A stretch of DNA of 64,000 bases from Asanoa ishikariensis (GTDB lineage Bacteria > Actinomycetota > Actinomycetes > Mycobacteriales > Micromonosporaceae). Below the pieces are notes generated by a model. That model saw only the letters and a program-made list of their open reading frames with translations. It had not been told where the DNA came from and did no database searches. Positions 55,156-57,330 of the stretch are shown piece after piece (the stretch's first letter is position 1; every line of letters begins with the position of its first letter). Both the position numbers and the translations under genes were made by a program. The stretch covers positions 682,001-746,000 of the forward strand of contig NZ_FNQB01000001.1 in NCBI RefSeq assembly GCF_900107455.1. The letters are read 5' to 3'.

Positions 55156-55911
55156 GTGACCGCTCTCGCTGATCCGCTCGCGCCTCTGCTGGCGCTCGCC
55201 GACGTGCAGGATGCCGTCGGGCAGGCCCGCGCCGCCGCCGATGCCGCGATGCGACATCGGGCATTGCGCCGACAGGGTGGCGTGGTCGCCGCCGAGATCA
55301 GCTTGCGGTCCGCGGTCGCTTCGGCGGCTTTGGAGGGATACGCGCATGATCGTGAGCTGGTGCGCTCCGGCGTGGTGACCGACACCGTGGTGCAGGGCTG
55401 CCTACGGGTCGCAGCGGCGCTCCCGTCGCTGGTCGACACCTGGCCGAAGGCGCCTCGGCAGGTGCTGGCGCGGCTGCACGTGCTGGCGGCGCGGGGTTCG
55501 GTGCCCATGGACGCGCTCGGGCATCCGGTCGACCCGTCCTCCGGTCCGCGACTGGACGCGCTGGCGGCGCTGGTGGCCGGCGGGACGTCGGCGCCACCGC
55601 TGGTGCTGGCGGCCGTCGTACACGGTGAGCTGTTGGCTCTGCGGCCCTTTGCCGGTGTGCCCGGGGTGGTGGCACGCGCCGCGGCCCGGTTGACGCTGAT
55701 GTCGTCGGGCTTCGACCCGCGTGGGCTGATCGCGCCCGAGGTGGGGCATCTGGCCCGGGAGCCGGAGTACCTGGGTGCGGCGGGTGCGTTCGCGACCGGC
55801 ACGCCGGACGGGGTGCGCTCCTGGCTGCGGCATTGCGCCGGTGCGGTGTCGCTGGGTGCGGCTTCGCTGGAAGAAGTGGCCGAACAGACGTGGACGGCGC
55901 CTCAATCCTGA
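55156..55911 (+). CDS. Degenerate Fic-fold protein
   Basis: 251 residues from GTG 55156. The N-terminal helix SLRSAVASAALEGYAHD resembles the (S/T)xxxExG region of Fic proteins. The segment HGELLALRPFAGVPGVVAR (156-174) aligns with the Fic loop HPFxDGNGRxxR, but the catalytic His is replaced by Arg and GNGR by GVPG, so AMPylation is not expected. Homologues next to acs are often named oxidoreductase, without evidence in this sequence. It is divergent from acs, 208 bp away. Confidence 0.65.
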   Translation: MTALADPLAPLLALADVQDAVGQARAAADAAMRHRALRRQGGVVAAEISLRSAVASAALEGYAHDRELVRSGVVTDTVVQGCLRVAAALPSLVDTWPKAPRQVLARLHVLAARGSVPMDALGHPVDPSSGPRLDALAALVAGGTSAPPLVLAAVVHGELLALRPFAGVPGVVARAAARLTLMSSGFDPRGLIAPEVGHLAREPEYLGAAGAFATGTPDGVRSWLRHCAGAVSLGAASLEEVAEQTWTAPQS

Positions 55912-55920
55912 GGCGCCGTC
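55893..55920. terminator. Hairpin over the Fic-like stop codon, possible 3' end of a minus-strand RNA
   Basis: A perfect 12-bp stem (55893-55904 with 55909-55920) and an ATCC loop; the TGA stop lies in the second arm. It may serve both the plus-strand gene and, read on minus, the RNA candidate at 55921-56199. There is no T run on either side. Confidence 0.5.
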
Positions 55921-56199
55921 ACTCACGTCCGGCCGGGTTACCAAGCGTGCACCTTTAGTCGTCGTCGGCGGTCGCTTGCCGCGATCCGCCGGGACGTGCC
56001 TGCCGCGGCTGGTCGCGCGTGGGTGCCCGGTGGCCGTGCACGGAGCCCTTCGTGAGTTGGGGTCCGCATCCCCTTTTCTACGCCGATGCCCGCTTGATCG
56101 GAACCCTTTGACCGGTGCTTTGACCTGGACGTGTCGCGGGTTGCCGCGGGTTGGTTACGCGGTGCTGGCCCGCGCGGTGGTGGCCTGCGCGGTGGTGGC
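55921..56199 (-). ncRNA. Candidate Ms1/6S-like RNA by synteny and nested pairing
   Basis: A 279-bp gap without a gene lies between the convergent Fic-like and HAD genes. As I recall, MTS2823/Ms1 of mycobacteria lies downstream of the HAD gene Rv3661, and S. coelicolor scr3559 lies between SCO3558 (HAD) and SCO3559; both are RNA-polymerase-binding or 6S-like RNAs. Four complementary arms nest in order: 55924-55930 with 56127-56133 (7 bp), 55935-55939 with 56102-56106 (5), 55942-55947 with 56091-56096 (6) and 55965-55970 with 56081-56086 (6), giving a rod with unequal bulges. An inner hairpin is at 56059-56073. Ends and strand are inferred; no promoter is assigned. Confidence 0.45.
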
Positions 56200-57006
56200 T
56201 TATGCGGTGCTGGGTGCGGTGCGGGTGCGGCGGTGGCGGCCGTACCAGGCGATGCCTATCGCGACACCGACTCCGACGCCGATCGCGGCGGCGGCGACTG
56301 GGACGGCCGGGCGCTCGCGCAGCCGGCGGCCGATCGGGATGGGGTGCCGGAACTCGAGCACGGGCCAGTTGTTCTCGGCGGCCAGGCGGCGCAGCGCGCG
56401 GGGCGGGTTGACGGCGCTCGGGTGGCCGACGCATTCGAGCAGCGGGATGTCAGAGGTCGAGTCGGAGTAGGCGTAGCAGTCGGCCAGGTCGTAGCCGCGC
56501 TCCTTGGCCAGCGCGGTGACCGCGTCGACCTTGGCGGTGCCGGCGGCGTAGAACTCGACCTGGCCGTTGTAGCGACCGTCGGTGACGCCCATCCGGGTCG
56601 CGATCACGTCGGTGATGCCGAGCAGGGCGCCGATCGGCTTGACGATCTCCTCGCCGGAGGCGGAGACCAGCACCACGTCGCGGCCGGCCGCCTGGTGCTC
56701 GTCGATCAGGGCCGCGGCCTCGGCGTAGATGTATGGGTTGATCAGCTCGTGCAGGGTCTCGGTGACGATCTGACCGACCTGGTCGACCGGCCAGCCCTTG
56801 CAGAGGGTAGCCAGGTAGTCACGAATCCGCGCCATCGACTGGTCGTCGGTGCCACCGAGACGGAACATCAGTTGCGCGTACGCCGACTTCACGACGTCAC
56901 GGCGCGTGATGAGGCCGTCACGGTAGAACGGCCGACCAAAGGCCAAGGCACTCGACTTGGCGATGACGGTCTTGTCCAGATCGAAAAACGCGGCGCTCCG
57001 ACCCAC
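56200..57006 (-). CDS. HAD-IB family phosphatase with C-terminal membrane helix
   Basis: 268 residues from GTG 57006, where the HAD motif I FFDLDKTVI (D-x-D-x-T) follows directly; the longer frame to 57129 is not family-like. Motif II is VLVSASGEE, and SDSTSDIPLLECVGHPSAVNP gives motifs III-IV. The C-terminal AVPVAAAAIGVGVGVAIGIAWYG is a membrane anchor. Relatives include SerB-like phosphatases and the Rv3661 protein. No ribosome-binding site is seen, and TAGACT lies about 6 nt before the start, so the mRNA may be leaderless. Confidence 0.88.
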   Translation of the reverse strand: MGRSAAFFDLDKTVIAKSSALAFGRPFYRDGLITRRDVVKSAYAQLMFRLGGTDDQSMARIRDYLATLCKGWPVDQVGQIVTETLHELINPYIYAEAAALIDEHQAAGRDVVLVSASGEEIVKPIGALLGITDVIATRMGVTDGRYNGQVEFYAAGTAKVDAVTALAKERGYDLADCYAYSDSTSDIPLLECVGHPSAVNPPRALRRLAAENNWPVLEFRHPIPIGRRLRERPAVPVAAAAIGVGVGVAIGIAWYGRHRRTRTAPSTA

Positions 57007-57051
57007 GATCGAAAGTCTAATGTGCGGCGCGAAACGTGCTGCCCCTACCGG

Positions 57052-57193: not shown

Positions 57194-57330
57194 TTGAGAC
57201 ACGATTTCCAGTCGTGTTTCCGACCCTCGGCGGTTGCACCCCCCGTAACCGCTGAGTGGGTTCGGCTCGACCCCCCCGGAGCCGAACCTCAGGCGACCCC
57301 CGTCTCCCCCCGACGGGGGTCGTCGTTTTT
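57194..57330 (+). ncRNA. Candidate structured RNA, four consecutive hairpins
   Basis: In order on the plus strand: 9-bp stem 57196-57204 with 57212-57220 (one G-T); 10-bp stem 57226-57235 with 57247-57256 (one G-T); 10-bp stem 57259-57268 with 57279-57288; and 11-bp stem 57294-57304 with 57312-57322 followed by TCGTTTTT. Nothing codes on this strand upstream (the HAD gene is on minus), so the terminator must end a short RNA or an ssd leader transcript. Start and promoter are not defined. Confidence 0.5.
57294..57330 (+). terminator. Intrinsic terminator upstream of ssd
   Basis: A perfect 11-bp stem with a seven-base C-rich loop and a run of five T on the plus strand. It lies 187 bp before ssd, with no plus-strand gene before it for 1.4 kb, so it supports an unannotated RNA or a transcription attenuator. 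Confidence 0.8.

What the first reader, a model, noticed from the sequence alone, without database searches (positions are those of the whole stretch)
55893..56199. Candidate Ms1/MTS2823/scr3559-like (6S-like) RNA between HAD and Fic-like genes
Seen: a gene-free gap between convergent genes, four complementary arm pairs nested in the right order (7, 5, 6 and 6 bp), an inner GGGG/CCCC hairpin, and a 12-bp hairpin at the distal end. Known from memory: RNA-polymerase-binding or 6S-like RNAs of mycobacteria and Streptomyces lie just downstream of the same HAD-family gene, near ssd and acs. Inference: this species encodes the family member here on the minus strand. Such stems are common by chance at 70% GC, so the nesting is supportive, not decisive.
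Basis: partly seen in the sequence, partly recalled or inferred. Interest (0 to 1): 0.8.

Follow-up and report, generated by a model that had tools for sequence, protein, structure and literature searches.

The report
Ms1-type RNA gene beside HAD gene

Summary
The minus strand of the gap carries a conserved RNA gene of the Ms1/scr3559 family. By homology the RNA runs 56067->55892 (about 176 nt), not 56199->55893. The conserved fold has 16 of 44 pairs with two-sided changes. A covariance model from 33 relatives (R1) finds one place in this genome, matches 109 of 393 genomes of the class, own included, and hits a locus with an exact published scr3559 oligo and one with 29 of 30 letters of the published anti-Ms1 oligo. 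Rfam's Ms1 model (RF02566) does not match the window, but it and R1 both hit two intermediate loci. R1 is weak on Mycobacteriaceae (24-46 bits). Ms1 in 21 Micromonosporaceae genera was predicted in 2022 (PMC9130861). A new, compact member of a known kind; transcription and polymerase binding are untested here.

The parts
55892..56067 (-). Ms1/scr3559-family RNA gene, about 176 nt; 5' end inferred at G56067, 3' end at the terminator hairpin
   Evidence: R1 match 1-172/172, 166.3 bits, E 9.8e-25; the only other match at E<=1 is a 33-bit one on the opposite strand of the same place. Start: Rfam Ms1 matches in L110 and L204 begin at the homologous ACGG; (A/G)CG(G/A) follows the -10 by 6-7 nt in 74 of 89 loci with the motif
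56075..56080 (-). -10 element TAGAAA (inferred from sequence)
   Evidence: GTA[CGA]A[AC]A near the R1 start in 89 of 112 loci against 6 of 598 control stretches; 19 of 20 displaced copies have it; the inverted Hamadaea copy too
56098..56103 (-). -35-like TTCCGA, 17 nt upstream of the -10 (weak evidence)
   Evidence: position and partial conservation seen; no separate test
56041..56066 (-). 5' hairpin P1
   Evidence: 93.7% paired, 4 of 6 pairs with two-sided changes
56026..56036 (-). 5' strand of closing stem (CGGCCACCGGG)
   Evidence: 98.5% paired in both helices; 1 of 8 pairs with a two-sided change, 5 of 8 never vary
55926..55937 (-). 3' strand of closing stem
   Evidence: as above; in family f17 part of it is only 65.6% paired
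56018..56025 (-). near-invariant 5' core strand CACCCACG
   Evidence: ACCCACG in 32 of 33 family, 20 of 20 displaced, 28 of 28 class, 12 of 12 f2 (Mycobacteriaceae, inferred), 6 of 6 g68 (Streptomyces, inferred) and 2 of 2 f3 copies
55936..55950 (-). near-invariant 3' core strand GCACGCTTGGTAACC
   Evidence: ACGC[ACT]TGNTA in 33 of 33 family, 14 of 20 displaced, 27 of 28 class, 12 of 12 f2, 5 of 6 g68 and 1 of 2 f3 copies
55961..55995 (-). distal stem-loop
   Evidence: 8 of 10 pairs with two-sided changes in the family; in family f17 two mid-stem pairs are lost in 15 of 16 sequences
   Evidence: 99.2% paired, 3 of 11 pairs with two-sided changes; 99.4% paired in f17; terminal hairpins seen by eye in many displaced copies
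56200..57009 (-). HAD-family hydrolase gene, syntenic neighbour upstream of the RNA
   Evidence: PF12710 E 8e-34

Best explanation
The minus strand of the gap encodes an autonomous small RNA of the Ms1/scr3559 family. It is probably made from its own housekeeping-type promoter (inferred from sequence), starts near 56067 (inferred by homology) and ends at the hairpin 55893-55920. It folds into a rod with a 5' hairpin, a closing stem, a sequence-constrained internal region and a distal stem (supported by conservation and covariation). As Ms1 and scr3559 do, it is expected to accumulate in stationary phase and to bind the core RNA polymerase mostly without the primary sigma factor, holding enzyme in reserve (inferred; not tested here).
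For: Covariation: 16 of 44 pairs with two-sided changes, score 0.193 against shuffled 0.092, 0 of 500 shuffles as high. Check on 15 sequences of another family (f17) plus the window copy: 91.8% paired, score 0.104 against 0.066, 0 of 500. Strand: 50 G-U against 10 A-C cells; 166 bits on the minus strand against 33 on the plus. Spread: 87 of 121 family genomes and 109 of 393 class genomes, own genome included in both. Link to known RNAs. Promoter motif enrichment. Synteny. The two core motifs occur in order, 30-260 nt apart, once on the two strands of the 64-kb window, at this RNA.
Against: RF02566 does not match the window even at E up to 10. R1 is weak on the same order outside the family: 3 genomes reach E 0.01, and on 12 f2 loci it gives only 24-46 bits. 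The RNA is shorter (about 176 nt) than scr3559 (228 by its published ends) and Ms1 (about 304). In f17, two of five covariation measures do not stand out (26 and 162 of 500 shuffles), and parts of the closing and distal stems are not kept. Pairing inside the invariant core cannot be judged, as it does not vary. R1 found no copy in 34 of 121 family genomes, so the RNA is dispensable or missed there. No transcript data.
Confidence: 0.88

Rival explanations
1. It is a true 6S RNA: it binds the polymerase holoenzyme with the primary sigma factor and templates short product RNAs.
For: Length (176 nt) lies in the 150-210 nt range given for 6S RNAs (PMC4191392, passage). scr3559 showed about 45-fold enrichment on HrdB in stationary phase (PMC11077062, passage), and PMC8539372 cites binding assays of scr3559 with RNAP-HrdB (passage).
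Against: No Rfam 6S match. scr3559 was about 1250-fold enriched on polymerase in stationary phase, and M. smegmatis Ms1 binds core without sigma (passages).
Confidence: 0.05
2. A regulatory RNA of the same descent that has lost polymerase binding and acts otherwise, for example by base pairing.
For: It lacks the extra sequence that Streptomyces-type copies have between the start and the R1 region.
Against: Both core strands are kept in 91 of 101 copies tested, f2 and g68 included.
Confidence: 0.05
3. Not a separate gene: 3' end of the HAD messenger, with the 12-bp hairpin serving as a shared terminator of the convergent genes.
For: The hairpin overlaps the end of the convergent gene; the RNA lies on the HAD strand.
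Against: The -10 motif is kept in 19 of 20 displaced copies and in the inverted Hamadaea copy; in 25 of 62 class genomes checked no HAD ortholog was found.
Confidence: 0.03
4. Chance stems in GC-rich DNA.
Against: Covariation and cross-class homology.
Confidence: 0.005

Closest known systems
scr3559 / Ms1 of Streptomyces coelicolor
   Same: In the oligo-bearing locus L205: downstream of the same HAD gene on the same strand, R1 match, TACAAA before the start. Core strands and hairpin in the g68 copies
   Different: 222-228 nt from ACGG to the R1 3' end in 7 of 7 loci (228 by the published ends) against about 176 here
Ms1 of Mycobacterium smegmatis / MTS2823 (Rfam RF02566)
   Same: Synteny, start (ACGG), core strands; both models hit the same intermediates
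   Different: About 304 nt; the Rfam model does not match the window
6S RNA
   Same: Rod-like RNA thought to mimic an open promoter; similar length
   Different: No Rfam match; Ms1 RNAs are reported to bind core enzyme
CoRP RNA of Corynebacterium glutamicum
   Same: Abundant polymerase-bound RNA of an actinobacterium (PMC11077062, passages)
   Different: Described there as a new type; not compared here

Membership tests
Ms1/scr3559 family | Lies just downstream of the HAD gene, same strand | tested here: met
   27 of 37 class genomes with both alike
Ms1/scr3559 family | Homologous to experimentally shown members | tested here: met
   R1 hits a locus with an exact scr3559 oligo and one with 29 of 30 letters of the anti-Ms1 oligo; R1 and RF02566 share two intermediates
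Ms1/scr3559 family | Reaches the gathering score of Rfam RF02566 (162 bits) | tested here: not met
   no match. Not taken as defining: the Streptomyces-type loci L104 and L205 do not reach it either, and PMC9130861 says Rfam's Ms1 covers only near relatives of mycobacteria
Ms1/scr3559 family | Long hairpin with conserved internal bubble and short end hairpins | tested here: inconclusive
   rod, end hairpins and conserved internal strands are there; whether the internal strands are open cannot be told, as they do not vary
Ms1/scr3559 family | Own promoter and terminator | tested here: met
   by sequence only
Ms1/scr3559 family | Abundant in stationary phase | not testable with these tools
   no expression data
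Ms1/scr3559 family | Binds core RNA polymerase without primary sigma factor | not testable with these tools
   needs pull-down
6S RNA | Match to an Rfam 6S model | tested here: not met
   none
6S RNA | Binds holoenzyme and templates product RNAs | not testable with these tools
   needs pull-down and product RNA assay

The most novel reading that the evidence does not exclude
The RNA is a compact Ms1 that shows the minimal working unit of the family: two near-invariant internal strands (CACCCACG and GCACGCnTGGTAACC) held by a short closing stem, shared by sequence from Mycobacteriaceae to Streptomyces and Micromonosporaceae, and so the likely polymerase contact. The family is thus united by sequence and not only by gene order, and lineages with the HAD gene intact (Micromonospora, Salinispora and others) have lost it, perhaps several times, and may use another polymerase-bound RNA.
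Probability: 0.45. Interest if true: 0.55.

Novelty: new member of a known kind. Interest (0 to 1): 0.42.

Why it matters
Ms1 RNAs outside mycobacteria were assigned by gene order plus sequence similarity within related groups, and the 2022 study wrote that its homology search for distant Ms1 RNAs was not successful (PMC9130861). A model from one family reaches Streptomyces-type loci, families f17, f20 and f25 and, weakly, Mycobacteriaceae. It gives a start site, a promoter, a fold and two testable contact strands, and it finds copies away from the HAD gene.

Tried and rejected
1) Rfam alone: at gathering score the window has only the 6C RNA. Weak hits in the gap (best Scr1601, 21.6 bits against a gathering score of 100, E 0.083) were dropped.

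2) From the published anti-Ms1 oligo I first wrote that GGCGTAG lay inside the RNA (note). One search showed that the oligo matches the middle of the mycobacterial RNA; GTAGAAA corresponds to the -10 (note). The earlier idea was dropped.

4) A HAD gene tree: absences are scattered among present lineages, suggesting several losses, but it is one short protein and I do not rely on it.

5) A CRP-like palindrome in mycobacterial Ms1 promoters: a paper search gave 3 papers; passages of one (PMC3207917) tie CRP to MTS0997. Not pursued.

6) Rows dropped or not given: of 37 nhmmer hits among 70 family loci, L067 (weak), L050, L055 and L070 were left out, so alignment A1 and R1 rest on 33. R1 later matched L050, L055, L070 and L058 strongly and L067 only at 12.7 bits. 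A3 holds 15 of 21 f17 loci held. One search covers 62 of the 108 class hits other than the own genome.

Full report
WHAT WAS CLAIMED.

NAMES. That family f1 is Micromonosporaceae is inferred: contig lengths tie G091 to Phytohabitans flavus and G021 to Rugosimonospora africana. 'Mycobacteriaceae' for f2 rests on the anti-Ms1 oligo and RF02566 matches, 'Streptomyces' for g68 on the scr3559 oligo, 'Micromonospora' for g4 on the HAD tree.

OBSERVATION. The HAD-domain gene (PF12710) ends at 56200 on the minus strand, and the convergent plus-strand gene ends at 55911; the latter has no Pfam match. The 12-bp hairpin is perfect but overlaps the last 19 bp of that gene. Across 33 relatives they are 59.7% paired, with no covariation beyond shuffling. 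The single-sequence fold is only mildly stable (z -1.93; 4 of 100 shuffles as good).

CONSERVATION. The HAD gene was found in 116 of 121 genomes of the family. I took the stretch downstream from 70 loci. A profile from six of them matched 37 of 70; 33 were aligned (A1). The consensus has 44 pairs: a 5' hairpin, a closing stem, an internal region, a small hairpin, a distal stem and a terminal hairpin. On A1, 96.9% of cells pair, 16 pairs have two-sided changes, and the covariation score is 0.193 against 0.092 in shuffles (0 of 500 as high). The structure was derived from these same sequences, so I carried it to 15 sequences of another family (f17) aligned with the window copy (A3). There 91.8% of cells pair and the score is 0.104 against 0.066 (0 of 500), but two measures do not stand out (26 and 162 of 500), one helix of the closing stem is 65.6% paired and the inner helix of the distal stem 64.9%. 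G-U cells outnumber A-C cells 50 to 10 on A1, which favours the minus strand.

EXTENT. Near the R1 start, GTA[CGA]A[AC]A occurs in 89 of 112 loci against 6 of 598 control stretches of the same loci; in 74 of the 89 the next (A/G)CG(G/A) begins 6 or 7 nt later. The Rfam Ms1 matches in L110 and L204 start at the homologous ACGG, and the published start of M. smegmatis Ms1 is an adenine (PMC4191392, passages). By this homology the window RNA starts at G56067 and ends at the hairpin, 55892/55893: about 176 nt. The -10 motif is present in 19 of 20 displaced copies and in the inverted Hamadaea copy.

SPREAD. R1 finds one place in the own genome, 166.3 bits, E 9.8e-25; a 33-bit hit is the opposite strand of the same place. 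It matches 87 of 121 family genomes, 33 of 44 genera, and 109 of 393 class genomes, own genome included. Outside the family only 3 genomes of the same order reach E 0.01, but all three hits lie downstream of HAD on its strand. Of 62 class genomes with hits that were checked, 37 have a HAD ortholog; in 27 the RNA is under 1 kb downstream on the same strand, in 8 it is 1.3-3.5 kb away on the same contig (3 of these on the other strand), in 2 on another contig. In 25 no ortholog was found. Among 80 named HAD loci, 57 have an R1 match at E up to 0.05, two of them on the opposite strand. The 23 without are 9 Micromonospora, 2 Salinispora, 2 Stackebrandtia, 7 Blastococcus or Geodermatophilus, and one each of Prescottella, Streptacidiphilus and Streptomyces. 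The Prescottella locus does match RF02566 (151 bits, below gathering).

LINK TO KNOWN RNAS. The exact scr3559 oligo 6SR printed in PMC8539372 (passages) occurs in 1 of 295 genomes of the genus of G396; the neighbouring published oligo is read next to it. In that locus (L205) R1 gives 52 bits, E 1.3e-6, downstream of HAD on the same strand. The anti-Ms1 oligo of PMC4191392 occurs with one mismatch in 1 of 248 genomes of the genus of G163; in that locus (L204) R1 gives 35.6 bits, E 7.2e-4, inside an RF02566 match of 322 bits. On 12 f2 loci R1 gives 24-46 bits. RF02566 and R1 both find L121 and L122 (49 and 37 bits; 40 and 39 bits). RF02566 does not find the window, nor L104 and L205 at gathering. 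The two internal strands ACCCACG and ACGC[ACT]TGNTA are both present in 91 of 101 copies tested.

MECHANISM. Supported here: a conserved structured RNA, its strand, a likely promoter and terminator. From the literature: M. smegmatis Ms1 binds core polymerase without sigma, binds much less without its internal bubble, and rises in stationary phase (PMC4191392, passages); scr3559 binds polymerase mostly without HrdB (PMC9130861, abstract; PMC11077062, passages). Inferred: the window RNA does the same.

KNOWN OR NEW. Of PMC9130861 I saw the abstract, sections 19 and 22, part 1 of 2 of section 23, and passages. Its table lists 21 Micromonosporaceae genera with predicted Ms1, without Micromonospora or Salinispora. 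The genus of the window could not be named with these tools, so I cannot say whether it is listed. Two paper searches (12 of 153 papers listed; 5 papers) showed no title on Ms1 in Micromonospora; I saw titles and abstract openings only. The member, its bounds and its fold I did not find described in what I read; the kind is known.

LIMITS. No expression data. R1 E-values come from a short calibration. Scans of over 40 genomes used stricter filters and may miss weak copies, so absences are provisional.

Noticed in passing
window 57256-57328 (+): 6C RNA (Rfam RF01066, 68.7 bits) between the HAD gene and a ParA-like gene; a 6C match is also in L180, L188, L196 and L204.
   Followed up: no
L011, L013-L015, L023, L024, L031; family genomes G003, G045, G065: By eye the HAD gene and its convergent neighbour are under about 100 bp apart in these loci, and R1 finds no copy in those genomes. 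The HAD tree places some among named Micromonospora and suggests several losses.
   Followed up: partly
L198, L199, L202 (Geodermatophilaceae MAGs), L163 (Frankiales MAG): R1 hits of 87-93.5 and 61.6 bits on the HAD strand, although PMC9130861 reported no Ms1 in Geodermatophilales or Frankiales; 7 of 7 Blastococcus/Geodermatophilus loci have none. MAG labels are the records' own.
   Followed up: partly
L205: The oligo 6SR, published as complementary to scr3559 (PMC8539372), equals the HAD strand and spans the -10, so that paper's RNA would lie on the strand opposite to the one in PMC9130861; the conserved family here lies on the HAD strand.
   Followed up: partly
L146 4284-4455; L206-L225: RNA copies inverted relative to HAD (Hamadaea MAG) or lying away from it, with the -10 motif kept in 19 of 20 displaced copies.
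   Followed up: partly
L111-L115, L118: A palindrome TGTGAC-N4-GTCACG lies between -35 and -10 of these f2 copies (seen), resembling a CRP site (consensus recalled); not seen in the window.
   Followed up: partly
class family f17 (for example L075-L093): Strong R1 hits (99-129 bits) in genomes where the only HAD matches were distant relatives away from the RNA.
   Followed up: no
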